Shown one piece after another: positions 1 to 11,868 of a stretch of 64,000 bases of DNA. The position numbers and the translations under genes were made by a program. Under the pieces are notes generated by a model, which saw only the letters and a list, made by a program, of their open reading frames with translations, did not search any database and was not told the DNA's origin. Numbering within the stretch: the first letter of the stretch is position 1; every line of letters starts with the position of its first letter. Source of the stretch: G963555815 sp965249615 [NCBI: bacterium] (lineage in GTDB: Bacteria > UBA8248 > JACPRG01); contig CBDFMI010000005.1 of assembly GCA_965249615.1 (NCBI GenBank), positions 620,001 to 684,000 of the forward strand. The letters run 5' to 3'.

Positions 1-305
1 TCTACATCGACCCCATCGATTGCATCGACTGTGACGCCTGCGTGCCGGTCTGCCCCGTCGACGCTATCTACAAGGAAGACCAGGTCCCCGAGAAGTGGAA
101 AGACTATACCCAGAAGAACGTCGACTGGTTTGATACGGAGGAAGGGCGGGAGGCCAAGTCAACGGGCAGGATCATGGAGGGCGTCTATCGAACCCTGGGC
201 TCAGACACGCTCCATTTGAACCGTGTTGATATGGATAAGGTGAAGGCCAAAGCCCCCATTGCCACGAAACTCAATATCGTGGCAGACGAGACGGGTGATA
301 GATAA
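1..305 (+). CDS. fdxA: seven-iron ferredoxin (FdxA-like), C-terminal part
   Basis: The gene is cut by the left window edge; the first whole codon is at base 3 and it ends with TAA at 303-305. The visible protein opens with YIDPIDCIDCDACVPVCPVD, a [4Fe-4S] motif CxxCxxCxxxCP. The stretch after it (EDQVPEKWKDYTQKN) is typical of bacterial 7Fe ferredoxins of the FdxA type, whose [3Fe-4S] half would lie upstream of the window. About 55 residues follow, a longer tail than I expect for FdxA. The likely role is a soluble low-potential electron carrier; the convergent Mo/W oxidoreductase gene at 1081-3327 is a plausible partner, but this is inference from position only. A strong hairpin terminator follows at 344-382. 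Two decayed copies of this 3' end lie downstream. Confidence 0.85.
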   Translation, partial: YIDPIDCIDCDACVPVCPVDAIYKEDQVPEKWKDYTQKNVDWFDTEEGREAKSTGRIMEGVYRTLGSDTLHLNRVDMDKVKAKAPIATKLNIVADETGDR

Positions 306-343
306 GAGGCCTAGACCTCCTTCTAGCCCTTTCCGCACATCAT

Positions 344-382
344 AAAAAGGGGCTGCAGGGAAAATCCTGCGGCCCCTTTTTT
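344..382 (+). terminator. Rho-independent terminator of the ferredoxin gene
   Basis: The sequence has an A-run, the left arm GGGGCTGCAGG, a short loop GAAAAT, the right arm CCTGCGGCCCC and then TTTTTT. The arms pair over 11 bp with one G-U pair. It lies 39 bases after the ferredoxin stop. Confidence 0.9.
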
Positions 383-403
383 ATATATCCCCCTCCCCTT
401 CCA

Positions 404-676
404 GAAAAGAACGGCAGGCCCCCAAGAAGCGGAAAGACTATGCCCGGAAGAACACCGACTGATTTGATACTGAGGAAGGCTGGGGGGCCAAGGCGGCGGG
501 CAGAATCCTGGGGGGGCAGAGAGGGCAGATATCGATCCATGGACCCAGGGGACTCGGGCCTGTCCAGGCTTCAGAACCACTCCATTTGAACCATGTTGAT
601 ATCGAGACAGTAAGGGTTGGCACCCCCACTACCACGAAACTTGATAGCGTGGCAGACGAGACAGGGGATAAGTAGC
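404..676 (+). pseudogene. decayed ferredoxin 3' copy 2
   Basis: This segment aligns by eye with bases 72-305 of the intact ferredoxin gene. It begins after the cysteine motif, so no cluster-binding residues are present. An in-frame TGA replaces the Trp codon of the DWFDTEEG block (GACTGATTTGATACT), and further changes and a shared insertion break the reading. The end (GTGGCAGACGAGACAGGGGATAAG) still matches the true gene's tail. I see no ribosome binding site or start, so it is a dead fragment. Confidence 0.8.
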
Positions 677-709
677 CTAGGCCTTCTTCTAGCCCTTTCC
701 GCACATCAT

Positions 710-748
710 AAAAAGGGGCTGCAGGGAAAATTCTGCGGCCCCTTTTTT
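710..748 (+). terminator. duplicated ferredoxin terminator
   Basis: This is a copy of the 344-382 hairpin: GGGGCTGCAGG, loop AAAA, TTCTGCGGCCCC, then TTTTTT. One C-to-T change leaves a G-U pair, so the fold is kept. Confidence 0.8.
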
Positions 749-770
749 ATGTGCCCCCCTCCCCTTTCAT

Positions 771-1001
771 AAAAGGGGACCCAAGCCCCCGAGAAGCGGA
801 AAGACTATGCCCGGAAGAACGTCGACTGGTTTGATACGGAGGAAGGGCGGGAGGCCAAGGCGACGGGCAGGATCATGGAGGGCAGAAAGGGCAGATATCG
901 ATCCACGGGCCTAGGCCCGCCCCGGGCTTCGGACCCGCTCTACTTTAACCGTGTTGATATCGAGAAAGTGAAGGCTGGCGCCCCCATTGCCACGAAACCC
1001 A
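771..1001 (+). pseudogene. decayed ferredoxin 3' copy 3
   Basis: This is a third copy of the ferredoxin 3' end. It keeps the block encoding RKNVDWFDTEEGREAK better than copy 2 does, and also keeps the ending CCCCCATTGCCACGAAACC. It has no cysteine motif, no start and no ribosome binding site. Like copy 2 it carries the inserted GGGCAGATATCGATCCA segment. It runs directly into the hairpin at 1004. Confidence 0.78.
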
Positions 1002-1003
1002 AC

Positions 1004-1043
1004 AAAAAGAGGCCGCGGGAAAAATCCCGCGGCCTCTTTTTTT
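1004..1043. terminator. bidirectional hairpin terminator
   Basis: A-run, then GAGGCCGCGGGA, loop AAAA, TCCCGCGGCCTC and TTTTTTT: a 12-bp perfect GC-rich stem flanked by A and T runs on both sides. It can therefore stop transcription from the ferredoxin side on plus and from the oxidoreductase gene ending at 1081 on minus. Confidence 0.9.
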
Positions 1044-1080
1044 ACCCAATCCCCTTTTCAGAAGGGGAAGGTCTCAGGTG

Positions 1081-3327
1081 CTAGACCTGGTCGTAGGTCG
1101 TCACCGGCTCCTCGCACTTTGAGATTCGGGCGAGAACCACTCCCAGATACCAACTTCCGGCGGCCTGGTCACTGTGGGACGGGTCGTCAGAAGTGCACAG
1201 GTTGATGTTAGACTCCCACACCCCAAGGAGCGTAGGCTCAGCCGCTGATTTGTCCGGGAACCACCATCCGAAGGCAGGGCAGATCACCTTGGGATGAATG
1301 GCGTCCGTCACACGGGCCAGCTGCTTGCAGCGACCGTGACGAGTCTCGATCCACACAGCATCCCCATCCTCGATCCCGTGCTTCTTCGCGACCTCAGGAT
1401 GTATCTCACACAGCGGTCTCGGCTCAAGACGCCTCTGGGCATCGATGTGCCGGTGTGAGGAGTGGAGGAACGCCTTGCACTTACGGCTGATCATCACGTA
1501 GGGGTAGTCCTTCAGAAGGTCAGGTGTCCTGAAGGGGCTCTCGGCCGGCTCCATGTGGTCCGGCAGAGGGTCGTACCCCAGGTCCTTGTAGATGGTGGAG
1601 GAGAGCTCCACCTTCTTCATGTTAGTCCTGAAACGGCCGATCTGCTCATGCTCCTTGTGGGGCAGGGCCTCTGTGTCCCAGTACTTGGTACTGGAAAACT
1701 GCTCCCAGGTCATCCCCGTCGGCTTCAGCCGGTAGTCGTACACATCTTCCAAGGTCTCCCAGGGCCAGACCTCTTTCTCAGTTTGACCCAACCGGATCCC
1801 AAGCGCCCGCCAGAAGTCATAGTCGTCATAGCGGTCAAACTCCCCTTCTCTCTTCTTGGGAAGTGCGCGCTGGCCGGTGGCCAGGGTATTGGCGTGCTCC
1901 AAGAAGGAGAACTGGGGACGCTCGACCCAGTGAGTGACAGGAAGGACATAGTCCATCAGGGCACCCGTCGGGTTCATGGTCAAGTCGAGGTTCACCGCGA
2001 GTTCTGTGTTCTTGATCGCCTCATACACATGGCGCGAGTTCGAGAGGGTCAGTATGGGGTTCGAGCCATTCACAATCAGCGCTCGAATGGGATAGGGCAC
2101 CCCCGTGCGGCACGCGTGGATGATGGAGGCAAACGGGGCCCCACGGAGAATCGCGGTACGCACCGCAAATCTCATCTCGTCAGGGAGCTTCTCCCAGCCG
2201 GGCCAGGTCATTGCCTTGAAGCGCTCAGATCCGACGGCCTTGCGGTACTGCTCCGGAGGAAGCGAATCGGGCATTTCCATCTTGGTCAGATAGACGTACT
2301 TCGAGTAGGCCCGGATAAACTGGTTACCCCCTCGAACGTCCAGGTTGCCCGTGATGGCCCGCAGGCAGCACCGGGCGCGCTCCGTCCCAGAGATGTTCAG
2401 CCCGTAGTAGCCAATGGGGCTCCCCCACTGGATGTAGCCCGGCTTCGTCGTCGCGTACATCCGCGCAGAGTCCACCACTTCCTTCTCAGTGAGCCAGCAA
2501 AGCTCGGCCGTTTTCTTCGGGGGGTACTTCTGGACCCGCTCCTTCAGCTCATCAAAGCCGTGCGTCCACTTGGCCACGAATTCCTTGTCGTAGAGCTCTT
2601 CGTTGATGATGACGTTCAGCCAGCCCATGGCCAGGGCCCCGTCCGCACCCGGACGGATCTGAAGGAACATGTCCGCTCGGTCCACCTCACGGATTCGGGT
2701 CGGGTCGATCACGATCATCTTCTCTACGTTCCGTGCCCGGTCCCACTTGATGGGGCTCGTGATGGTGGGGCGGTTTCCCCAGATGACCAGAAGACGCGTG
2801 TGAATGGGGTCGCAGGGACCATAGTGAGCAATCCCGCCGTAGACGACGAGGTTCGCCCAGGCCTCGGTCCCACCACAGATTCGGGCGTCCGCGCTGTCCG
2901 TGTTGGGGCTCCCAAAGTTGTTCATGAAGCGCGCGACTTCCCACTGCTCATTGTAGAACCCGAAACCCGCACCCAGGGTCTCGGCCCCGTATTTGTCCTT
3001 GATCTTCTGCAGCTTCTCGCCGATCTCATCGATGGCTTGCTTCCAGGAGATCTCCTTCCACTTGTTCGCCCCGCGCTCTCCAGCTCGCTTCAGGGGGTAG
3101 TTCAAGCGGCTCGGGTGGTTGGTCTGCTCCACTGTCCCCTTCTGCTTGGGACAGCCCTCGATCTTGAAGAAGGGGGTCATCGGGCTTTCTTTGAAGGTCG
3201 CGACCTTGACCAGCTTCCCGTCTTCAATGTGCAGCTCAGTGTGACAGATGTCGTGCTCACAGTTCTTACAGAGACCGATCTTGATCTCTCGCTTTGGCGC
3301 GGTTTTGACCGCAGGTGGTGTCGCCAT
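1081..3327 (-). CDS. Mo/W-bisMGD oxidoreductase, DMSO reductase family
   Basis: A 748-residue catalytic subunit. Cys20, Cys23, Cys28 and Cys59 form the N-terminal [4Fe-4S] site with a CxxCx4C spacing. The pterin-binding domains follow, and ARICGG places Cys151 where this family has its Cys or Sec metal ligand. The last 130 residues form the molybdopterin-dinucleotide-binding domain (EIHPEVAKKHGIEDGDAVWI). There is no twin-arginine signal and no membrane segment, so it is probably cytoplasmic. Glu24 directly follows the second cluster cysteine, as Asp13 follows Cys12 in acetylene hydratase. Formate dehydrogenase-, polysulfide reductase- and hydratase-like functions all remain possible, and the substrate is unknown. 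The gene has its own promoter at 3459-3488 and a palindrome in its leader. mobA, mobB and a nitrilase lie upstream on the same strand. Confidence 0.85.
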   Translation of the reverse strand: MATPPAVKTAPKREIKIGLCKNCEHDICHTELHIEDGKLVKVATFKESPMTPFFKIEGCPKQKGTVEQTNHPSRLNYPLKRAGERGANKWKEISWKQAIDEIGEKLQKIKDKYGAETLGAGFGFYNEQWEVARFMNNFGSPNTDSADARICGGTEAWANLVVYGGIAHYGPCDPIHTRLLVIWGNRPTITSPIKWDRARNVEKMIVIDPTRIREVDRADMFLQIRPGADGALAMGWLNVIINEELYDKEFVAKWTHGFDELKERVQKYPPKKTAELCWLTEKEVVDSARMYATTKPGYIQWGSPIGYYGLNISGTERARCCLRAITGNLDVRGGNQFIRAYSKYVYLTKMEMPDSLPPEQYRKAVGSERFKAMTWPGWEKLPDEMRFAVRTAILRGAPFASIIHACRTGVPYPIRALIVNGSNPILTLSNSRHVYEAIKNTELAVNLDLTMNPTGALMDYVLPVTHWVERPQFSFLEHANTLATGQRALPKKREGEFDRYDDYDFWRALGIRLGQTEKEVWPWETLEDVYDYRLKPTGMTWEQFSSTKYWDTEALPHKEHEQIGRFRTNMKKVELSSTIYKDLGYDPLPDHMEPAESPFRTPDLLKDYPYVMISRKCKAFLHSSHRHIDAQRRLEPRPLCEIHPEVAKKHGIEDGDAVWIETRHGRCKQLARVTDAIHPKVICPAFGWWFPDKSAAEPTLLGVWESNINLCTSDDPSHSDQAAGSWYLGVVLARISKCEEPVTTYDQV

Positions 3328-3416
3328 CTTTCTCTCCCTTTTTTTAGTCCTGTTTGCAACCCTGCTGCTGCAGGAACGTCGCGAACATCCCCTTTCGTGG
3401 AATCGCTGATAGGCCT

Positions 3417-3433
3417 AGCGACAGACTGTCGCT
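3417..3433. promoter_or_regulatory. 17-bp perfect palindrome in the oxidoreductase leader
   Basis: AGCGACAGACTGTCGCT is a perfect inverted repeat around a central A. It lies roughly 20-36 bases downstream of the predicted transcription start of the Mo/W oxidoreductase gene. It could be an operator bound by a dimeric repressor or a small leader hairpin. No regulator gene is present nearby. Confidence 0.45.
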
Positions 3434-3458
3434 GCCGGACTCAGCATGAATACCGAGA

Positions 3459-3488
3459 CTTTTACCCTTTCACCTCTGACCTTGTCAA
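3459..3488 (-). promoter_or_regulatory. sigma70-type promoter of the oxidoreductase gene
   Basis: Read on minus: TTGACA (3488-3483), 18 bases, TAAAAG (3464-3459); a 17-base spacing to GTAAAA also works. It sits in the 218-base gap between the nitrilase gene and the oxidoreductase start. The gene can therefore be transcribed apart from the upstream operon. Confidence 0.5.
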
Positions 3489-3545
3489 CTACTATTTTCA
3501 CCCCCTACGAAAACGGGGCGAAAGCCAACAAGTGCGCCAAACATT

Positions 3546-4628
3546 TCACTCCAGGTTCCCGGCCACATGCTCCCGACTCAGCTGGGCCAGCCGCTCTTCC
3601 AACTCCTCCACCTTCGCCGTCAGCTCACGAACCACTTCGGCACCCTGTCCCGCCTCGCCCTCCTTCGCTGGGCCTCGGTCCCAAGGGGTGTAGGCCTTGG
3701 TGTTGACGTCAAGACGAATCACGTCCCAGCGAGCATCCCGCCCGCAGACGTCAATGTAGCACTTGCGGCGAAGACCCTGATAAAGGTCCACGTCCGCATA
3801 AAGGATGGTCTCCTTCCCATACACCGGCCCCGCCAGATACTCGCCATTGGGGTCAATGACGGCGCTCCCACCGGGAAACCCCCAATGGGCGTTCCCCAAG
3901 TTGGCCACCTCGGCAGCCTCCTCAGGGATATAGGTCGAAGCGGCCACCACAAAACAGGACCCCTCAATGGCGTAGGCTCGAGAGGCGATCTGGACAATCT
4001 CCTTATTGCTACGCCCAGGGGGAGGATAATGGGGCCAACTCCCAGGCCAGCAGGCACAATGAATCTGCTCCCCTTGAGCGATCAAGGCATATTTAAAAAG
4101 GGGCTGGAGGTGCTCATAACAAATCAGTCCCCCTACCTTCCCCACCTCTGTGTCAAAGACGCAATGGAGGTCAGAGCCATCCCCGCGGCCATGAAACACC
4201 CGCTCTCGATGAGAAGGTGTGAACTTCCGGTGACGACCCAGGACCTTCCCGTCAGGACCAAAGAAGACCAGGGAGTTGTAGAGCATCCCAGGATAATCCT
4301 TGCGGCGCTCATTCAGACCCATCACCACCACCGCCCCGGCCTTGCGAGCCGCGTCGCCAATGGCCCGCGTCTCCTCGCTCGGCACCTCCACTGAATGGAG
4401 GATGAGCTCAGCCAGATTATCGGCCCACTCATTCGGACGGGCCATGTCCACCGCCCAGTTCGGAAACATGGGAATAAACCCCTCAGGAAAGGCCACCAAA
4501 CGCGCTCCCTGAGAGCCCGCCTCTTCAATGAGACGACAGGCCTTCTCCGTCGTCGCCTGCTTGTTCATCGGAAGAACAGGGGCAGCCTGAATCGCCGCCA
4601 CTTTCACTTTCAAGACATCCTTGGCCAT
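3546..4628 (-). CDS. nitrilase superfamily carbon-nitrogen hydrolase
   Basis: A 360-residue protein starting at MAKDVLKVKV; the site AGGAGGAGG lies four bases before this ATG, so I prefer it to the ATG ten codons upstream. The catalytic triad is Glu49 (FPEGF), Lys135 (HRKFTP) and Cys170 (LICYEH). HWGFPGGSAVIDPNG is the usual active-site/oligomer loop. Length and the CxEH signature fit true nitrilases (nitrile to acid and ammonia) rather than short amidases, though the usual Trp after the cysteine is Tyr here. The last 30 residues are a predicted coiled coil (VVRELTAKVEELEERLAQL). The gene begins 30 bases after mobA and precedes the Mo/W oxidoreductase. Substrate not known. Confidence 0.85.
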   Translation of the reverse strand: MAKDVLKVKVAAIQAAPVLPMNKQATTEKACRLIEEAGSQGARLVAFPEGFIPMFPNWAVDMARPNEWADNLAELILHSVEVPSEETRAIGDAARKAGAVVVMGLNERRKDYPGMLYNSLVFFGPDGKVLGRHRKFTPSHRERVFHGRGDGSDLHCVFDTEVGKVGGLICYEHLQPLFKYALIAQGEQIHCACWPGSWPHYPPPGRSNKEIVQIASRAYAIEGSCFVVAASTYIPEEAAEVANLGNAHWGFPGGSAVIDPNGEYLAGPVYGKETILYADVDLYQGLRRKCYIDVCGRDARWDVIRLDVNTKAYTPWDRGPAKEGEAGQGAEVVRELTAKVEELEERLAQLSREHVAGNLE

Positions 4629-4658
4629 CGTTCCTCCTCCTCTATTATCTCTAGGCAA

Positions 4659-5270
4659 TCAGCTAGAACTCTTCCGCCCTTCACCCAAAAGCCGCGCCTT
4701 TTCCAATTCCTCAGGGGTATTCAGGTTCCGAAAAGAAAGGAGGTCCGGGTCGTGGCGCATCAGCGTCTCCCGGCCGACCTCCTTCACCTTGACAAAGGGA
4801 AAGAGGCCATGGATAGCCAGGCGCCCTTTCTCTATAAGGGTCTCAATAGGGCCGCGACAGCTCTCGCAATAGACCGCATGAAGAGGCTCCGGGCCCGAGT
4901 CCGAGATGGGGACCACGACATCGAAGCCCTCACGTTCCTCGACCAGATGCCGGATGAGGGCCTCGTTCAGAAAGGGCATGTCACACGAAGCAAAAAAGGC
5001 GTGAGGGGCCCCGGCGTGAACAAGGCCCGTATAGACCCCCCCGAGAGAGCCCTTCCCGGGGTAGATGTCCGTATGGATCTCAAAACCCAGATGTTCATAG
5101 AGGGAGGGGGTGTTGGTGATCACGAGATTCCGTTCGAATATAGACTCAAGGACCTCGGCCACCCGCTCAACCAGGGGCTTATCGTCCACGGGGAGGAAGG
5201 CCTTATCCCTCCCCATCCGGCGGCTCTTGCCGCCGGCCAGCACCACCCCGGTGACCTCTGGGTATCGCAC
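4659..5270 (-). CDS. mobA: molybdenum cofactor guanylyltransferase MobA
   Basis: A 203-residue nucleotidyltransferase that adds GMP to molybdopterin, making the MGD form used by DMSO reductase family enzymes. The N-terminal GVVLAGGKSRRMGRDKA is the diagnostic GTP-binding loop, and FASCDMPFL holds the metal-binding Asp. The start is GTG with AGGATGAG just upstream. It lies 39 bases after mobB and 30 bases before the nitrilase gene, and it can supply cofactor to the Mo/W enzyme at 1081-3327. Confidence 0.92.
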   Translation of the reverse strand: MRYPEVTGVVLAGGKSRRMGRDKAFLPVDDKPLVERVAEVLESIFERNLVITNTPSLYEHLGFEIHTDIYPGKGSLGGVYTGLVHAGAPHAFFASCDMPFLNEALIRHLVEEREGFDVVVPISDSGPEPLHAVYCESCRGPIETLIEKGRLAIHGLFPFVKVKEVGRETLMRHDPDLLSFRNLNTPEELEKARLLGEGRKSSS

Positions 5271-5309
5271 GGTGTCTCATCCTATCCGAACAAGGGGCAG
5301 TGGCCCTAT

Positions 5310-5879
5310 CTAGGGGGCTGAGGAGGTCCGACTTCCCTGCACGTTTTTCCCCGACACACGAGACCTAGAATTAAGAAATTTTTGCTCGATGAAGTCAGCG
5401 ATCCCCTGATCGTCGTCCAGATGAAAACGCGGGACCTCCACCGACAACTCCGTGTCCGAGGCGACTGCGATCAGGGACTCATTGCCCTGACAAAAAAGCT
5501 CCTCACCGACCTCATGGCGATGGACTTCTATCTTGGGGATCTTGCTCCGCTTGTAGCCCTCGACCAGAACGAGGTCCACCTCCCCGATATAGGAACGGGC
5601 GATCTCATCAGGTTGGATATTGGGCGAAACCTTTCTGACGATGACCACTTCGCCCTGGGTTGAGGCGATAGAGACATCGGCCCCCGCCTTGCGGTGGCGC
5701 CAAGTATCCTTGCCTTCCCGCTCGACGCTGAAGGCGTGGGCGTGTTTAATCGTCCCGATGCGATAGCCTCTCTGAGTCAGCGCCTCAACGAGCTTGACCA
5801 CCAAGGTCGTCTTCCCGCTACCGGAATAGCCGACCACAGCGAGGATAGGAATTCCCTCTTGGTTCGAGTCCAGAGTCAC
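5310..5879 (-). CDS. mobB: molybdopterin-guanine dinucleotide biosynthesis adapter MobB
   Basis: A P-loop GTPase of 189 residues that assists MobA. Walker A is VVGYSGSGKTT near the start, TIKHAHAFSVEREGKDTWRH contains the family's His and Asp block, and LVLVEGYKRSKIPKIEVHR is the MobB signature. The open frame extends upstream, but the GTG at 5879 overlaps the previous gene's stop as GTGA, which points to coupled translation from there. It forms part of the FAH-FAH-mobB-mobA-nitrilase run. Confidence 0.9.
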   Translation of the reverse strand: MTLDSNQEGIPILAVVGYSGSGKTTLVVKLVEALTQRGYRIGTIKHAHAFSVEREGKDTWRHRKAGADVSIASTQGEVVIVRKVSPNIQPDEIARSYIGEVDLVLVEGYKRSKIPKIEVHRHEVGEELFCQGNESLIAVASDTELSVEVPRFHLDDDQGIADFIEQKFLNSRSRVSGKNVQGSRTSSAP

Positions 5880-7030
5880 TTTCTTCTGCCCTGCTTTCCC
5901 CACTCCTTCGCCTCCTTCGGCCCCCACTTGAAGATCTCGGTGGTCGAAGACTCGGTGTACGAAACGGCTTCTCCCCGCCCCGGAAAGGCTTTGAAGGAAA
6001 AGGTGAAGGGGGAGCCCTGGAGGGGCCGTCTCACGCGATTTTCGAGGACCCCCATCGCTTCGATTTCGCACCGGATGTCGTCGCCCGCCTGGAGATACTC
6101 TCCCTGCTTCGCCTCGTCGGAACGCTCGTGGGTATTGGCACCGAGCGCCTCGTCCGAACCCAGGCCACAGCCCCCCGGCGTCCCCATGGCGATGACAAAC
6201 CCCGGTTTCAGGGACATGATTCGCGAAATGTAATGGATAGTCTCCGGAATAGACCAGAGGAAATTCTTGGTGTTATCTTCCTGGCGCAACTCTCCGTTCA
6301 CCCAGGTCCTCATGCCCAGGTCCTCTGGGTGATCCATCTCCGCTTTGGTGAGGATCCAGGGCCCGAGGGCAACACTCTTGTCGAAATTCCTCCCCTGCCC
6401 ATAGCGAACGTGGAACTCCTTCCCTCCCTCTCCCCAGGGAAGGACCTCATGGTCCCGGGCCGAGAGGTTGTTAACGATGGTGTAGCCGAAGACGTGATCC
6501 AGGGCCTTCTCAGGAGAGATGTTTCGGCCCCCCTTCCCAATCACAACGCCCAGCTGAACACCGTAGTCGAGCTTCTTTATGAGACGGGGGTCGGCCCAAA
6601 ACGCCTCGCCCGGACCAATCACGGTGTGGGGTAACTTGAGAAAGAAGCCGGCCTGGTCGGGCCGGGTCCGGTTGGTCTCATCGAAGTAGTCCTTGAAATT
6701 CGATTCAAGACACACCAGGGCTCGGGGGGTGAGGGGAAGCTTGGGAACAATCGTGGACACGTCGTAGGGGAGATCGACAAGCCCCTCATTGAAGATCTTT
6801 GTGCCAAAGGAGACGGCCGCGTTGAAGGCCCTTAGATATTTATCTCCCCCCTCCAGGATTTGAGCGAAATCGTAGGGGAGCTTCTCAGCGGCCAGTTCTT
6901 TCGCCCTGGGATCTCCCATGATGTCGTTTAAAAAGAGGGCGTAGCACTCCTGTATGTCGATCACCTTGTCCTCGTGGACAAAGGTGCCCAACATCCTCTT
7001 CATCCCGTGCTCAACGTTGAGAATCTTCAT
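5876..7030 (-). CDS. FAH-fold protein lacking the metal ligands
   Basis: A 384-residue fumarylacetoacetate hydrolase-fold protein with an extra C-terminal tail of about 40 residues. The fold is clear (LPHTVIGPGE, DHVFGYTIVNNLSARDHE, MGTPGGCGLG). Where the family has ExE in DYExEL and D in GYTxxND, this protein has Gly157, Gln159 and Asn188. All three usual Mg/Mn ligands are therefore replaced. It may be a non-catalytic partner of the canonical paralogue at 7043-8044, whose gene ends 12 bases upstream, or act by a metal-independent route. Both are inference. Its stop overlaps the mobB start. Confidence 0.82.
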   Translation of the reverse strand: MKILNVEHGMKRMLGTFVHEDKVIDIQECYALFLNDIMGDPRAKELAAEKLPYDFAQILEGGDKYLRAFNAAVSFGTKIFNEGLVDLPYDVSTIVPKLPLTPRALVCLESNFKDYFDETNRTRPDQAGFFLKLPHTVIGPGEAFWADPRLIKKLDYGVQLGVVIGKGGRNISPEKALDHVFGYTIVNNLSARDHEVLPWGEGGKEFHVRYGQGRNFDKSVALGPWILTKAEMDHPEDLGMRTWVNGELRQEDNTKNFLWSIPETIHYISRIMSLKPGFVIAMGTPGGCGLGSDEALGANTHERSDEAKQGEYLQAGDDIRCEIEAMGVLENRVRRPLQGSPFTFSFKAFPGRGEAVSYTESSTTEIFKWGPKEAKEWGKQGRRK

Positions 7031-7042
7031 TCCTGACCTCGA

Positions 7043-8044
7043 CTAGGAATCTTCGTGGACCTTATCAACAGAATTCTCCAGCGAGCCGATGGAGTCAATC
7101 TCGGTCTTAATCTTATCACCCAGCTTTAGAAAACCGCATTTCATCGCAGGAACCGTCAGGGTGGGCCCGCCGGAGTCCGCCCGGCCCAGCCGGGGGCCTC
7201 CAGGGCTTCCGCTGGTGATGACAATTCCCGGGTCCAGTGTAAAGAAGGTGGAGAGGTGGCTGACGAAGGAGAGGGGGTCGACCGGCAACTCATCCGGCTT
7301 GAACTCCTCTTGGAGCTCCCCGTTGACCCATAGCCGGTGCGAGAGGTTCCCCACACCGCCCTCTATCTCGTCCTTGGTGACGATCCAAGGGCCCAGGGCG
7401 CCCGCCGCCTCAAGACAGACCCCTTCCAAAACCCGGCTGTGGAACGCCCCGCCCTCCATGCCCATGCTCAACTGGTCCACCGCCAAGATGTCCGTGAATA
7501 TCGTAAAACCGAAGATGTGATCTAAGACCTCGTTCTGGGGGATGTCCTTCCCCCCCTGTCCGATGATAATGCCAAGCTCTACCTCGGAACGGAGGTCCTT
7601 GGCCACCTCCGGCTCATGGGGGATGGGGTCTCCAGACCCGATCACGTGGGGGCCGGATTTGACGAAAAACTCCGCATGTCGGTAGAGGTCTACGTCCTCG
7701 GCCTGCGCAGGCCCGTAACCCGCGCACACCACCGCGTCCGGTTGAAGGGGAGTCCTCAGGCGCACCTCGCGCAGAGGTCGGACCTCTGCGAAAAGGTCCC
7801 CCTCGGCACGCCTCGTTTCAAAGTACTCGAGGGCTTGGGCCGCCGCTTCCCAGGACGCCTCTCCTCCACGGATGAAGTGGAGCATATTGCTTGAAATCCG
7901 AGACCTCGCGAGTCCCTCTGCACGCCGATCTCCCTCAACCTCGGATAGATACCGGGTGTAGAGCCGCTCGAGGTCGGCCACCTCGTCTCCGACAATGCAG
8001 CCGATCCTCGTCTGGCCATCAAAGATGTAGGTCCCGAGCTTCAC
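7043..8044 (-). CDS. FAH-family hydrolase/hydratase, canonical metal site
   Basis: A 333-residue member of the fumarylacetoacetate hydrolase superfamily, which covers C-C hydrolases, decarboxylases and 2-oxopentenoate-type hydratases. Glu154 and Glu156 (RSEVELGIIIGQ) and Asp185 (FGFTIFTD) are the three metal ligands. SGSPGGPRLG is the substrate loop. The start is GTG after GGAGGG. It is the first gene after the promoter at 8119-8147 and lies just before its ligand-less paralogue. The substrate is probably an enol or beta-dicarbonyl acid. Confidence 0.85.
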   Translation of the reverse strand: MKLGTYIFDGQTRIGCIVGDEVADLERLYTRYLSEVEGDRRAEGLARSRISSNMLHFIRGGEASWEAAAQALEYFETRRAEGDLFAEVRPLREVRLRTPLQPDAVVCAGYGPAQAEDVDLYRHAEFFVKSGPHVIGSGDPIPHEPEVAKDLRSEVELGIIIGQGGKDIPQNEVLDHIFGFTIFTDILAVDQLSMGMEGGAFHSRVLEGVCLEAAGALGPWIVTKDEIEGGVGNLSHRLWVNGELQEEFKPDELPVDPLSFVSHLSTFFTLDPGIVITSGSPGGPRLGRADSGGPTLTVPAMKCGFLKLGDKIKTEIDSIGSLENSVDKVHEDS

Positions 8045-8118
8045 GCGCTAACCCTCCAAAAAAGCCGGTGCCGGTGCATGTAAGAAAAAGATCCTTTTAG
8101 CGGCTGGTCTGCACAGAC

Positions 8119-8147
8119 ATTATCTGGCCGCAGGGGCTTCCTGTCAA
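8119..8147 (-). promoter_or_regulatory. strong sigma70-type promoter of the FAH-mob-nitrilase operon
   Basis: Read on minus: TTGACA (8147-8142), exactly 17 bases, then GATAAT (8124-8119). The predicted start is near 8112, leaving a leader of about 68 bases before the GTG at 8044. It lies in the 131-base gap after the MFS gene. Confidence 0.7.
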
Positions 8148-8175
8148 TATATACCCAGCCCCGTTCCCCAATGAG

Positions 8176-9417
8176 TCACGCCGTTTTCCCCGGCTCCTCC
8201 GCCCACTGTTGGAGCTCCTCCCCCTCACTCTCTCTCGAGAAAAGGCACATGAAAAAGCCGAAGATCAGGAGGACCGCGCCGAGATAAAAAGCGCCGACCA
8301 GGGAGCCCGTCAGGTCCCGGATGAGACCCGACAGCACAGGGGCCACGACGCCTGAGGAGATTCCGATCAAGTTCACTACCCCCATGACCGTCCCCATGGC
8401 CTCCGGTCTTTTTCTCGCCACATCGTCTCCGACCCACGCCAGGAGGATGGGCTCCACTGCCGGTTTTCCAGCGGCACCAAAAAACAAAAGGGCCAGGGCC
8501 AACCCCAAAAGCGACTGGGAGTGGGCGATGAAGAACAGGCTTGCGGCCGCCAGGGGAAAGAGGAGGAGGGAGAGGGGGCGCCGCCCCACCCGGTCGGAGA
8601 CCCTGCTCACAATGATGCTCACCGGGATGGCCGACAGGGCATAAATGGCTGCAAAGAGACCGGACCCCGTCACGCTGAAACCGTGCTCGGTCTGCAGGAA
8701 CAAAGGACCCCAGATGACGATGAGCCAAAAACCATAAAGAGAGCAGAAATTGGCCAGGGATAAGGCGATGAGCCTGGGTTGTCCCAGGACGCTCCGAAGC
8801 GGTGCCCGAGGGCCTGCGGGCTTTGGAGGAAGGTCTTGGATGGCCTTGAGGTAGACCCATGCCATTCCGATCGTGGGGATGGCCAGGAGGACAAAGGGCA
8901 GACGCCAGCTCTCCAGGAGCCGGAAGACGGGGCCTGAAAAGAGGAAACCGGCTCCCATGCCCACGAAGATACCCACGAAGACGGTGGCGGAGCGGACGGC
9001 CCGAAGATGGGGGGGTGAGGTCCTCAGCACATATCCAAAGGCCGAGGGAAAGTAGACGCCCGTGGCAAGACCGTGGATGGCCACAAAGAGGAGGAGAGTC
9101 TCGTAGCGGGTGGCGAGGAGTCCTAGGCCCACCAGCGCGACACCCGCCACCGCATAGCTCGTCGCAAGTGTCTTTCGAAATCCCACCCGGTCGGACAGAA
9201 ACCCTCCCAGGATCTGGGTGGACCCATAGAAGAGGAAGAAGACACTGCTGATGGTCCCGATCTGGACCCCGCTCAGCGAGAAGTCATCCGCAATCACTGA
9301 GAGGAGGGGAAACAGCGTGGTCCTGTTAGCGAATAGAAAAACCCAACCCAGGAAGAAGATGAGAACGCCCGGACCCCAAATCTTCACAGAAGACCTGGCT
9401 GGGGAAGTCGAGTGCAT
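8176..9417 (-). CDS. MFS transporter
   Basis: A 413-residue integral membrane protein with about 12 hydrophobic segments. GGFLSDRVGFRKTL is the MFS motif A between helices 2 and 3, and a related loop, VSRVSDRVGRRPLS, follows helix 8. It begins with a short cytoplasmic tail and ATG, with AAGAAGG upstream. It is the first gene of the catabolic cluster by direction, but the FAH genes have their own promoter. It probably imports the cluster's substrate (inference); substrate class cannot be read from the sequence. Confidence 0.88.
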   Translation of the reverse strand: MHSTSPARSSVKIWGPGVLIFFLGWVFLFANRTTLFPLLSVIADDFSLSGVQIGTISSVFFLFYGSTQILGGFLSDRVGFRKTLATSYAVAGVALVGLGLLATRYETLLLFVAIHGLATGVYFPSAFGYVLRTSPPHLRAVRSATVFVGIFVGMGAGFLFSGPVFRLLESWRLPFVLLAIPTIGMAWVYLKAIQDLPPKPAGPRAPLRSVLGQPRLIALSLANFCSLYGFWLIVIWGPLFLQTEHGFSVTGSGLFAAIYALSAIPVSIIVSRVSDRVGRRPLSLLLFPLAAASLFFIAHSQSLLGLALALLFFGAAGKPAVEPILLAWVGDDVARKRPEAMGTVMGVVNLIGISSGVVAPVLSGLIRDLTGSLVGAFYLGAVLLIFGFFMCLFSRESEGEELQQWAEEPGKTA

Positions 9418-9564
9418 TCGGACTAAACCTTCTTCGGCCCGCCCCTGACAGGCGGTACACCGTAAAGAGTAGATTCCACCACTTGAGTTAACGAGGTTGA
9501 GGCCGCCAATTTACCGAACGTAGAAAGGCCGAAGGATAAAACTCGAAGCGGAGAACATGAAGAG

Positions 9565-9640
9565 TGGTGGAGGATAGGGGACTCGAACCCCTGGCCTCGT
9601 GGGTGCGATCCACGCGCTCTCCCAACTGAGCTAATCCCCC
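9565..9640 (-). tRNA. tRNA-Ala (anticodon CGC)
   Basis: Read on minus: the acceptor stem GGGGGAT pairs with ATCCTCC, including the G3-U70 pair that marks alanine tRNAs. The D-arm is GCTCAGTTGGGAGAGC. Stem CGTGG, loop ATCGCAC and stem CCACG give anticodon CGC. The T-arm is AGGGG TTCGAGT CCCCT. CCA is encoded after discriminator A. It decodes GCG and lies between the Mo cluster and lpdA. Confidence 0.95.
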
Positions 9641-9649
9641 GCAAGCGCA

Positions 9650-9931
9650 AAACGCACGATATAGGGCTGTCTCTTGACTGTCAAGAATCCCGCGTGCCCT
9701 CTGAGACCACAGGAAACCTCCCACAGGAAAGCTTGGCACAGGCTCTCCAATCCCCTGGGGCTCAGTGTCTCGACGGGACAAGAAGGGGTTTCGTTAAAAG
9801 GGAGAACCGAGCGGTCAAAACCCAAAAAGGTGGCCCCATTTTGGCACTGAATTTGCTACTACCTTGGAGGGATGTAGACCCAAAGCATAGGTGTAGACCT
9901 GTTTCTTTACCTCTTTTAGGGGGTTTCTGAG
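9650..9931. other. intergenic stretch with no gene
   Basis: I see no convincing coding frame, repeat or RNA in this 280-base stretch between the tRNA and the micro-ORF. The open frame across 9694-9930 has no family resemblance, no good start and a composition unlike its neighbours. Confidence 0.5.
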
Positions 9932-10057
9932 ATGGCCAGGAAGGCTCCTCCTCCTCCCCGTCCGCCTTCTGGCTCCTGATTCTGGCTCTATTTCGCCATC
10001 TGGTCTGTCCTCGGAGCTATCGCAGTCACCCTTGTGGTTTGGATAATCAAACTTTGA
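9932..10057 (+). pseudogene. membrane micro-ORF interrupted by one UGA
   Basis: ATG at 9932 is preceded by AGGGGG at 8-base spacing. The frame reads MARKAPPPPRPPSGS, then TGA at 9977-9979, then FWLYFAIWSVLGAIAVTLVV and five more residues (WIIKL) before the final TGA. With the internal TGA read as Trp this is a 41-residue protein: a basic, proline-rich cytoplasmic start and one strong transmembrane helix. The frame, the site and the helix together suggest a real small membrane protein gene. It is either inactivated by a TGG-to-TGA change or read through. I do not recognise the family. Confidence 0.5.
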
Positions 10058-10122
10058 TCAAAGACATCCGGCTTAAGCGTGAAGGCCCTCTGTCTTGTTT
10101 CCTCCCCGAGATGGGCAGAGGG

Positions 10123-10231
10123 ATGGGGCGTCCGGTCCCCATGCTCCTCCCCATGGGGCCGGGCGCCAAACTGTTTCGCATCTAGGTTCTCATGGTCGTG
10201 ATGAAACCCTGATGGGGAGCCGACGCCCCAT
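10123..10231 (+). repeat. nested inverted repeats, possible structured RNA
   Basis: ATGGGGCGTC at 10123-10132 and GACGCCCCAT at 10222-10231 are perfect complements. Inside them, 10127-10167 forms another hairpin (GGCGTCCGGTCCCCATG against CATGGGGCCGGGCGCC) with one bulge. CCCCATGAGG recurs at 10226-10235 and about 10258-10267. There is no credible reading frame. It could be a leader or small RNA; none is recognised. Confidence 0.35.
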
Positions 10232-10344
10232 GAGGACTCCCCAAGCTGTCTTTATTCCCCATGAGGCCCCCCCTGCCCAGGAAAAGCCGGTCGCTCCGCC
10301 CTCTATAGAAGAAGGAAGAAGTCAGAGGGCCACTCTCAGAGGGG

Positions 10345-10373
10345 TTGACAGGCCTCCCCGGTTCCCCTAAAAA
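10345..10373 (+). promoter_or_regulatory. sigma70-type promoter of lpdA
   Basis: TTGACA (10345-10350), 17 bases, TAAAAA (10368-10373). The predicted start is near 10380, about 67 bases before the lpdA ATG, which has AAGGGGG upstream. Confidence 0.6.
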
Positions 10374-10446
10374 GCAGGTTCTGCTATTTCCTTAAGGGAT
10401 AGGCCTTTCTAGCCTCTTCATCTCAAGCAGAGAAGGGGGTCTTGTC

Positions 10447-11868
10447 ATGCCTGACTTTGACGTGGCCATTCTGGGCGGAGGACCTGCCGGTTACGTGGCG
10501 GCCATTCGCGGGGCTCAATTGGGTGGACGGGTGTGCGTCATTGAGCCGGAGAACCTGGGGGGCACCTGTGTCACCTGGGGTTGTATCCCCACCAAGACCC
10601 TCATCGCCTCGGCCCACGTTCTCCAGCTGGCCCGTCGGGCAAAGGAGTTCGGGGTGATCATCGATGGGACCATCCAGCCGGACTTCCCAGGGATGATGGC
10701 CCGAAAGGACCGGGTCGTGGATGGCCTCGTTAAGGGGGTCGAGGGGCTCTTTAAGAGCCACGGCGTCACGCGCATCAGGGGACGCGGGAGGCTGACGGGG
10801 CCGGGCCGCCTGAAAATAGACAAGGTTTCGTCTAAAGAGGATGGGCCAGGCGACGTGACGGCCGGCAAGATTATTGTCGCCACCGGCTCCCGCCCTGCCC
10901 AGTTCCCCGCCTTCCCAAGCGACGGAAAGCATATCCTCACCAGCGACGACGCCATGCGCCTGAAAAATCTCCCCAAAAGCTTTCTCATCATCGGGGCCGG
11001 GATCATCGGCTGCGAATTCGCCTTTCTCCTGCGGACACTGGGCTGCGAGATCACGATGGTGGAGATGCTCCCCCGCGCTCTTCCCACCGAAGACAAGGAC
11101 ATCTCGAAAATCCTCGAGCGTGAGCTCAAGAAGGAAAAGATCAAGCTCCTTGTGAACGAGCGGATCGAAAAGGTGGATGTCCGCGGTGGGGGCGTGGTAG
11201 CCCGGCTCAAGGGCGGCGACGAGATCAAGGCCGAAAAGGCCCTGGTCTCCATCGGGCGCGCCTTCAACACCGACGAGATCGGCCTTGAGGCGGTGGGGGT
11301 GTCCCTCGCCAAGAACCAGTCCATCGCCGCCGACCCCAAGATGGAGACGAACGTCCCCGGCATCTACGCGGCAGGGGACGTGGCGGGGGGCAAGCTTCTG
11401 GCCCACAAGGGCTCGGCCGAGGGGATCGTGGCCGTCTCAAACGCCCTGGGGGTCGAGAAAGAGATGAACTACCTGGCGGTTCCCGCAGGGATCTTCACCC
11501 ACCCGGAGGTCGGGAGCGTCGGCCTGACAGAGGCCCAGGCGAGAGAGGGGGACCGCCCCGTCAAGGTGGGCCGTTTCCTCTATCGAGGCATGGGCAAATC
11601 CCACGCCACGGGAGAGCTGGTCGGTGAGGTGAAGATCGTGGCCGATGAGCGGACAGGGGAGATCATGGGCGCCCACATCATCGGCGAGTCAGCGGCCGAT
11701 CTCATCCACGAGGTGACCCTCGCCATGCGCTGGGAGCTCACGGTGGAGGAGCTGGCCGAGACCATCCACGTCCACCCCACTATCTCCGAGACCATCATGG
11801 AGGCGGCCCACGCTGTCCAGGGGATGAGTCCCCACCAGCCCAAGGCAGCGGGCACCCCCGGCGCCTAA
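10447..11868 (+). CDS. lpdA: dihydrolipoyl dehydrogenase
   Basis: A 473-residue FAD-dependent disulfide oxidoreductase that reoxidises dihydrolipoamide in 2-oxoacid dehydrogenase or glycine cleavage complexes. ILGGGPAGYVAA binds FAD; Cys41 and Cys46 in GGTCVTWGCIPTK form the redox disulfide; LIIGAGIIGCEFA binds NAD; YAAGDV closes the FAD site; HVHPTISE holds the catalytic His-Glu pair. TWGC replaces the more common NxGC between the cysteines. No E1, E2 or GCS genes lie nearby, so it may serve several complexes. Single-gene transcript with its own promoter. Confidence 0.93.
   Translation: MPDFDVAILGGGPAGYVAAIRGAQLGGRVCVIEPENLGGTCVTWGCIPTKTLIASAHVLQLARRAKEFGVIIDGTIQPDFPGMMARKDRVVDGLVKGVEGLFKSHGVTRIRGRGRLTGPGRLKIDKVSSKEDGPGDVTAGKIIVATGSRPAQFPAFPSDGKHILTSDDAMRLKNLPKSFLIIGAGIIGCEFAFLLRTLGCEITMVEMLPRALPTEDKDISKILERELKKEKIKLLVNERIEKVDVRGGGVVARLKGGDEIKAEKALVSIGRAFNTDEIGLEAVGVSLAKNQSIAADPKMETNVPGIYAAGDVAGGKLLAHKGSAEGIVAVSNALGVEKEMNYLAVPAGIFTHPEVGSVGLTEAQAREGDRPVKVGRFLYRGMGKSHATGELVGEVKIVADERTGEIMGAHIIGESAADLIHEVTLAMRWELTVEELAETIHVHPTISETIMEAAHAVQGMSPHQPKAAGTPGA

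What the first reader, a model, noticed from the sequence alone, without database searches (positions are those of the whole stretch)
3546..9417. Uncharacterised cluster: MFS, two FAH-fold proteins, MobB, MobA, nitrilase, next to a Mo/W enzyme
Seen: seven co-directional genes, with GTGA coupling and gaps of 39 bases or less across FAH2-mobB-mobA-nitrilase, a consensus promoter (8119-8147) before the first FAH gene and a second one before the oxidoreductase. Known: MobA and MobB make the MGD cofactor used by DMSO reductase family enzymes; nitrilases hydrolyse nitriles; FAH-fold enzymes act on enol or dicarbonyl acids. Inference: a dedicated catabolic pathway that brings its own cofactor maturation. 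I do not know a described pathway with this set.
Basis: partly seen in the sequence, partly recalled or inferred. Interest (0 to 1): 0.72.

Follow-up and report, generated by a model that had tools for sequence, protein, structure and literature searches.

The report
Odd acetylene-hydratase-like enzyme with nitrilase operon
A bacterial gene cluster pairs a molybdenum or tungsten enzyme distantly related to acetylene hydratase with a nitrilase, cofactor genes and two related enzymes, one of which has lost its metal site; the parts are real, but the combination was not seen in the relatives examined and what it degrades is unknown.

Summary
The genes are real: MFS, FAH1, FAH2, mobB, mobA, nitrilase and a Mo/W enzyme, all on the minus strand, with gaps of 12, -4, 39 and 30 bases from FAH1 to nitrilase. 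The Mo/W enzyme's nearest solved relative by sequence and predicted fold is acetylene hydratase 2e7z. It keeps the metal-binding Cys but lacks Trp179 and has an altered [4Fe-4S] motif. Trees put it outside the acetylene hydratase clade, on a long branch. FAH1 keeps the FAH metal ligands E, E, D; FAH2 has G, Q, N. The nitrilase triad is present. Conserved synteny was not found: of 61 loci with relatives of the Mo/W enzyme, 0 hold FAH, mobA or mobB matches and 1 a weak CN-hydrolase. The closest relative seen is 45% identical, so near kin were not sampled. Whether mobAB is dedicated could not be tested: no whole genome is held. Verdict: a plausible catabolic locus around a separate lineage of acetylene-hydratase-type enzymes, substrate unknown.

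The parts
8176..9417 (-). MFS transporter, 413 aa; best NCBIfam matches are organic-anion families (TIGR00893, TIGR00881, TIGR00895, HpaX), all below cut-off
8119..8147 (-). sigma-70-like promoter TTGACA-17-GATAAT before FAH1
   Evidence: 11 of 12; sites of this class not above shuffles
7043..8044 (-). FAH1, FAH-fold protein, 333 aa, GTG start; metal ligands E, E, D kept; lid His of the H-x-x-E motif absent
5876..7030 (-). FAH2, FAH-fold protein, 384 aa; metal ligands replaced by G, Q, N; lid His replaced by Tyr; C-terminal extension
5310..5879 (-). mobB, 189 aa, GTG start overlapping the FAH2 stop (GTGA)
   Evidence: (TIGR00176 150 bits, cut-off 76.2)
4659..5270 (-). mobA, 203 aa, GTG start
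   Evidence: (NTP_transf_3, E 2e-39)
3546..4628 (-). nitrilase, 360 aa, Glu-Lys-Cys triad present
1081..3327 (-). Mo/W bis-MGD enzyme of the acetylene hydratase branch, 748 aa; cluster cysteines 20, 23, 28, 59; Cys151 as metal ligand; no twin-arginine signal by eye
3..305 (+). 3' part of a ferredoxin gene, cut by the window edge, convergent with the Mo/W gene; possible but unproven electron-transfer partner
   Evidence: open frame; 48-49% identical over 41-42 residues to annotated ferredoxins in L060 and L064
1004..1041 (.). strong terminator-like hairpin (17 pairs) between the Mo/W gene and the ferredoxin copies

Best explanation
A catabolic locus in two likely transcription units: FAH1-FAH2-mobB-mobA-nitrilase (with an MFS gene in front) and a Mo/W enzyme gene 218 bases behind. 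Shown by sequence: gene order, operon-like spacing, enzyme families, a complete nitrilase triad, the metal-binding Cys in the Mo/W enzyme, and the loss of the metal ligands in FAH2 but not FAH1. Inferred: the MFS imports an organic acid or nitrile; the nitrilase turns a nitrile into a carboxylic acid and ammonia; MobA and MobB make the bis-MGD cofactor; the Mo/W enzyme, a lineage beside acetylene hydratase, adds, removes or moves a hydroxyl group at an unsaturated or aromatic carbon of the acid; and FAH1, with FAH2 as a metal-free partner (as in two-domain HpcE), tautomerises or cleaves the resulting enol or oxo acid. The order of steps and the substrate are guesses.
For: Spacing 12, -4, 39, 30. 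Mo/W enzyme: 2e7z at 388.8 bits, next solved enzyme 193.3; its model (pLDDT 76.9, pTM 0.85) matches 2e7z best, Z 38.6 at rmsd 2.7 over 703 residues, next Z 36.0. One 21-row clade with acetylene hydratases at 100/99. The Cys141 equivalent is invariant in the 16 aligned sequences of A2, the window's included. FAH1 keeps E, E, D; FAH2 has G, Q, N; the N-terminal half of HpcE 1gtt also lacks E-x-E while its C-terminal half keeps it. Nitrilase triad. Cofactor genes near related enzymes: moaA, moeZ. FeS proteins and MFS transporters are reported next to acetylene hydratase genes (PMC7858054, passages). A nitrilase relative on a Haloarcula plasmid sits next to an MFS gene.
Against: 0 of 61 relative loci hold FAH, mobA or mobB matches. 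The Mo/W gene may be regulated apart. In the few loci read, neighbours of the nearest uncharacterised relatives are UbiD, CoA-transferase, acyl-CoA dehydrogenase or aldehyde oxidoreductase genes, so those relatives may do other chemistry. No regulator and no enzyme that would clearly link nitrilase and FAH steps is among the seven genes.
Confidence: 0.4

Rival explanations
1. The genes are neighbours without a shared pathway: mobB-mobA is the cell's ordinary MGD synthesis pair, the nitrilase is a broad-range detoxifying enzyme, and the FAH pair and the Mo/W enzyme serve separate routes.
For: No sampled relative of the Mo/W enzyme shares the set (0 of 61 for FAH and mob). MobA and MobB look ordinary. 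The Mo/W gene is 218 bases away.
Against: Overlapping or short spacing across five genes of one strand; cofactor genes occur near two related Mo enzymes.
Confidence: 0.3
2. The Mo/W enzyme is a catechol-dehydroxylase-like or other ring-modifying enzyme in the degradation of an aromatic nitrile or hydroxyphenylacetic acid; HpaG-like FAH proteins and the HpaX-like MFS serve the same aromatic route.
For: [quoted passage not shown] the Gordonibacter type has no TAT signal, a small 4Fe-4S partner and adjacent MFS genes (PMC7028382, passages), a layout much like this one. FAH1 and FAH2 match HpaG models (76 and 139 bits, cut-off 276.4) and the MFS matches HpaX weakly (58.2 bits). Two relatives in genome G001 have UbiD genes nearby. 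A nitrilase relative (41%) on a Rhodococcus ruber plasmid lies among ring-hydroxylating dioxygenase genes.
Against: No ring-cleaving enzyme is among the seven genes. The Paraeggerthella row, the nearest I had to that group, falls outside the clade that joins the window enzyme and acetylene hydratase, though its long branch makes its place unsure. No characterised catechol dehydroxylase sequence was in hand.
Confidence: 0.22
3. The Mo/W enzyme is a genuine acetylene hydratase and the organism grows on acetylene.
For: Best solved match in sequence and fold. Metal-binding Cys, Lys48 and Trp293 kept. Glu24 directly follows the second cluster Cys, where acetylene hydratase has Asp13, and Asp13 to Glu is reported as tolerated (PMC12096430, passages).
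Against: 34% identity to 2e7z against 42-47% for the other rows of the acetylene hydratase clade; outside that clade in both trees; Trp179 missing; cluster motif CX2CX4C, not CX2CX3C; nitrilase and FAH genes have no known role in acetylene use.
Confidence: 0.06

Closest known systems
Acetylene hydratase of Pelobacter acetylenicus (PDB 2e7z)
   Same: Fold over 703 residues, N-terminal four-Cys [4Fe-4S] motif, metal-binding Cys, Lys48 and Trp293
   Different: 34% identity; CX2CX4C motif; Trp179 absent; Arg606 is Lys; Trp472 replaced (Glu or Leu by alignment); outside the acetylene hydratase clade
Gut catechol dehydroxylases (PMC7028382, passages)
   Same: Reported nearest to acetylene hydratase; the Gordonibacter type lacks a TAT signal, has a small FeS partner and MFS neighbours
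   Different: No nitrilase, FAH or mob neighbours are mentioned in the passages read; not compared by sequence with characterised members
HpcE/HpaG isomerase-decarboxylase (PDB 1gtt)
   Same: Two FAH units, one without E-x-E metal ligands
   Different: One fused protein there, two genes here; in FAH2 the third ligand (Asp) is lost too; HpaG cut-offs are not reached
Nit6803-type nitrilase (PDB 3wuy)
   Same: Triad and overall match, E 9.4e-56
   Different: 223.5 bits against a family cut-off of 502.6

Membership tests
DMSO reductase (MopB) family | Molybdopterin and dinucleotide-binding domains | tested here: met
   PF00384 89 bits, PF01568 69 bits, both over cut-off
Acetylene hydratase | Fold and best solved sequence match to 2e7z | tested here: met
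   388.8 bits; Z 38.6, rmsd 2.7, 703 residues
Acetylene hydratase | Cys ligand to the metal (Cys141) | tested here: met
   Cys151
Acetylene hydratase | Asp13 after the second cluster Cys | tested here: inconclusive
   Glu24 (phmmer) or His25 (MAFFT) is aligned there; residues 23-26 have pLDDT under 50; Glu is reported as tolerated in acetylene hydratase
Acetylene hydratase | Trp179 | tested here: not met
   gap; kept in 5 of 5 rows of the acetylene hydratase clade (2e7z included)
Acetylene hydratase | Placement inside the clade of 2e7z | tested here: not met
   the 5-row clade, 100/100 and SH-aLRT 100, excludes it
Catechol dehydroxylase | Groups with characterised dehydroxylases | not tested
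   no characterised member in hand; one Paraeggerthella relative only
FAH family | Metal ligands E-x-E and D, FAH1 (role recalled) | tested here: met
FAH family | Metal ligands E-x-E and D, FAH2 (role recalled) | tested here: not met
   G, Q, N. Of 19 other loci with FAH matches a pattern that leaves the three positions free found 12 ORFs, all with E, E, D; two of the 12 are one gene. L061 and L062 also keep them
Nitrilase | Glu-Lys-Cys triad (residues recalled) | tested here: met
   FPEGF, RKFTPSHRER, LICYEH aligned to 3wuy
Nit6803 nitrilase (TIGR04048) | curated cut-off 502.6 bits | tested here: not met
   223.5 bits
MobB | TIGR00176 cut-off 76.2 bits | tested here: met
   150 bits
MobA | NTP_transf_3 cut-off 27 bits and the LAGGxSxRMGxDK motif (recalled) | tested here: met
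   135.8 bits; LAGGKSRRMGRDK; the stricter TIGR02665 cut-off is not reached (94.5 of 151.85)
Dedicated MGD maturation | a second mobAB copy in the genome | not testable with these tools
   no whole genome held

The most novel reading that the evidence does not exclude
The Mo/W enzyme is a hydratase of alkynoic or other activated unsaturated acids: the nitrilase turns an unsaturated nitrile into the acid, the enzyme hydrates it to an enol or oxo acid with Glu24 in the role of Asp13, and a mixed FAH complex (metal-bearing FAH1, metal-free FAH2) tautomerises or decarboxylates the product. This would be a further natural hydration reaction by a Mo/W enzyme, in a pathway that carries its own cofactor genes.
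Probability: 0.06. Interest if true: 0.75.

Novelty: new variant of a known kind. Interest (0 to 1): 0.4.

Why it matters
The only solved enzyme of this branch that my searches showed is acetylene hydratase, and there is little agreement on how its metal centre does a hydration (PMC12096430, passages). A separate lineage with a changed active site, next to a nitrilase and an FAH pair that narrow the possible substrates, gives a testable way into a large uncharacterised group: 107 of 395 sampled genomes of one phylum hold a homologue at E 1e-90 or better. The metal-free FAH2 beside an intact FAH1 is a separate testable oddity.

Tried and rejected
Conserved synteny: not found within reach. 61 loci with relatives of the Mo/W enzyme were examined (31 with at least 5 kb on both sides, 47 on at least one, 14 with neither); 0 had FAH, mobA or mobB matches, 1 a weak CN-hydrolase, 1 a weak MFS, 2 a ferredoxin match. 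They are the 19 loci, 20 regions picked from the matches, 20 of the 25 matches (three more were already held, two were not fetched), and two plasmid loci. Several come from one genome.

Kin of FAH2: 0 of 297 genomes of the phylum of G001 at E 1e-70 and at 1e-44 (apparently the same draw); 0 of 150 of the order of G002 at 1e-50; 1 of 146 of the class of G080 at 1e-40, whose gene keeps E, E, D and has no nitrilase, mob or Mo/W match in the 20 kb fetched (L115). There was no positive control for these empty searches, as the tool itself warns.

Plasmid records: no record over 60% identity for Mo/W enzyme, FAH2 or nitrilase; six contexts read, none with the set, one with MFS next to the nitrilase.

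Other: of 9 chosen genomes 8 had nitrilase-model matches; the 5 strong ones fetched of 7 (L066-L070) are 34-36% identical to the window's and showed no match to its other proteins in up to 1.5 kb. Rfam on 1-10500 gave only the tRNA over its cut-off. A genomic island at the tRNA was considered: its 3' end is not repeated in the window. The FAH2 structure model failed (pLDDT 30) and was not used. Taxonomy: rpoA is 59% identical to that of G001; the best by score in that genome's phylum is 61%, the highest listed 62%; the window's phylum was not settled. Papers PMC13101534 and PMC10100899 (passages) and searches (listings) added nothing used here. Trees: 5 fragments of the 46 ORFs were left out; for, 20 of the 41 relatives were picked by hand and 20 new ones added.
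Full report
What is there. Seven intact genes lie on the minus strand between 1081 and 9417. Gaps from FAH1 to nitrilase are 12, -4, 39 and 30 bases; MFS is 131 bases in front and the Mo/W gene 218 bases behind. The promoter before FAH1 scores 11 of 12, but the number of such sites in the region (4) is within what shuffles give (2.9, sd 1.6), and the claimed second promoter was not found by the scan.

The Mo/W enzyme. Among solved proteins the best match is acetylene hydratase 2e7z (388.8 bits, next 193.3). A structure model built from the window protein and 14 relatives (mean pLDDT 76.9, pTM 0.85) also fits 2e7z best: Z 38.6, rmsd 2.7 over 703 residues, next 36.0; Foldseek E 2.2e-57, next 9.3e-43. 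It has the four cluster cysteines (20, 23, 28, 59) and the metal-binding Cys (151), which are invariant in the 16 aligned sequences of A2, the window's included, but its first motif is CX2CX4C where acetylene hydratase has CX2CX3C. The acetylene hydratase residue numbers were recalled and then matched the 2e7z letters. Lys48 and Trp293 are kept, Trp179 is a gap in both alignments, Arg606 is Lys, and the residue at Trp472 depends on the alignment (Glu or Leu). For Asp13 the evidence is open: Glu24 directly follows the second cluster Cys and phmmer aligns it there, MAFFT puts His25 there, and the model is unsure of residues 23-26. A review says Asp13 to Glu is tolerated and to Ala is not (PMC12096430, passages). 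In the acetylene hydratase clade 4 of 4 rows that reach this part, 2e7z included, have Asp, the fifth (L011) being cut short; rows outside it mostly have His.

Its place in the family. In a tree of 42 rows with more close relatives it stands alone beside the acetylene hydratase clade and a 29-row group, on a branch of 1.25 changes per column (quick method, no bootstrap). So it is best called a lineage of its own; the long branch leaves its exact sister uncertain. Catechol dehydroxylases are described as nearest to acetylene hydratase (PMC7028382, passages); I had no characterised member to place. The same passages describe a Gordonibacter type with no TAT signal, a small FeS partner and MFS neighbours, which resembles the layout here.

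The FAH pair. FAH1 and FAH2 are 33-35% identical to each other end to end. Against 8sky, FAH1 keeps E-x-E and D, and FAH2 has G, Q and N. That these are metal ligands is established knowledge of the FAH family (recalled). Neither keeps the lid His of the H-x-x-E motif: FAH2 has Tyr, FAH1 has Gln or a gap by alignment. HpcE has a similar pairing inside one protein: its N-terminal half lacks E-x-E, its C-terminal half keeps it. In 19 other loci with FAH matches, a pattern that leaves the three positions free found 12 ORFs, all with E, E, D; two of them are one gene in two loci, and ORFs of another shape would be missed.

Other parts. The nitrilase shows FPEGF, RKFTPSHRER and LICYEH where nitrilases have their Glu, Lys and Cys (roles recalled). 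MobB passes its family cut-off; MobA passes Pfam's but not the stricter TIGR02665. The MFS protein scores best against organic-anion transporter families, all below cut-off.

Test of synteny. 19 loci with relatives came from named genomes (24-37% identity in the best segment). A search of 395 genomes of the phylum of G001 found 107 with a homologue at E 1e-90 or better, at most 43% identical in the list shown, and 85 genomes of its class gave up to 45%. G001 and G004, both named only as Deltaproteobacteria, are in that draw; I take the phylum to be Desulfobacterota (inference). Of 61 loci examined with the window's proteins, 0 had FAH, mobA or mobB matches, 1 had a weak CN-hydrolase (L013, 26%), 1 a weak MFS and 2 a ferredoxin. 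Ten neighbours picked from four loci of close relatives (L040-L043) include UbiD decarboxylases, a CoA-transferase, acyl-CoA dehydrogenases, an AMP-ligase and an aldehyde ferredoxin oxidoreductase, which suggests aromatic or CoA-linked degradation there. On the other side, cofactor genes occur near two related enzymes: moaA 98 bases behind a distant relative in Rhizobium sp. CB3090 and moeZ 3.3 kb behind one in Rhodococcus opacus, beyond an IS5 element. FeS proteins and MFS transporters near acetylene hydratase genes are reported (PMC7858054, passages); the window has an MFS gene and a convergent ferredoxin, the latter cut by the window edge.

Literature. Searches of the held library for acetylene hydratase with nitrilase and for fumarylacetoacetate hydrolase, nitrilase, molybdopterin and gene cluster together returned 0 papers. 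This covers open-licence PubMed Central papers only.

Verdict. The genes and spacing stand; one promoter claim does not. The pathway reading is plausible but unproven: tight spacing speaks for it, absence of the set in the relatives examined speaks against it, and near relatives were not available. The firm new points are the placement of the Mo/W enzyme outside the acetylene hydratase clade within the same branch, and the loss of the metal ligands in FAH2 alone of the pair.

Noticed in passing
window 69-1041: The 3' part of the ferredoxin gene with its terminator occurs three times in tandem (spacing about 334-370 bases; copies at 403-516 and 770-883 are 77% and 89% like 69-182); the second and third copies have no long open frame and look decayed.
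   Followed up: partly
window 9565-9640: A tRNA-Ala (CGC) gene lies directly upstream of the MFS gene on the same strand; its 3' end is not repeated elsewhere in the window, so no sign of an integrated island was found.
   Followed up: yes
L060 8998-11358 (Rhodococcus opacus DSM 44186 plasmid): A molybdopterin enzyme in the acetylene hydratase clade keeping Asp13, Cys141, Trp179, Trp293 and Trp472, among transposase genes and near fdxA: a candidate for the Mo-dependent acetylene hydratase of aerobic R. opacus, of which PMC7858054 says none has been characterised. That paper's Table S5 may already point to it (not seen). That this strain is a known acetylene degrader is my recollection.
   Followed up: partly
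L006 195-2558, L007 9935-12181, L011 3-1961: Pseudomonadota MAG genes that fall with 2e7z (100/99) and keep the metal Cys, Trp179 and Trp293; candidates for acetylene hydratases outside Pelobacter.
   Followed up: no
L041 8908-15096 and L040 8953-18595: Relatives of the Mo/W enzyme in genome G001 with UbiD genes nearby (directly downstream in L041, followed by a CoA-transferase), suggesting a role in aromatic degradation.
   Followed up: partly
window 10123-10142 and 10212-10231: A 20-base inverted repeat (90% complementary, 69 bases apart) in the intergenic region between the tRNA and the dihydrolipoyl-dehydrogenase-like gene.
   Followed up: no
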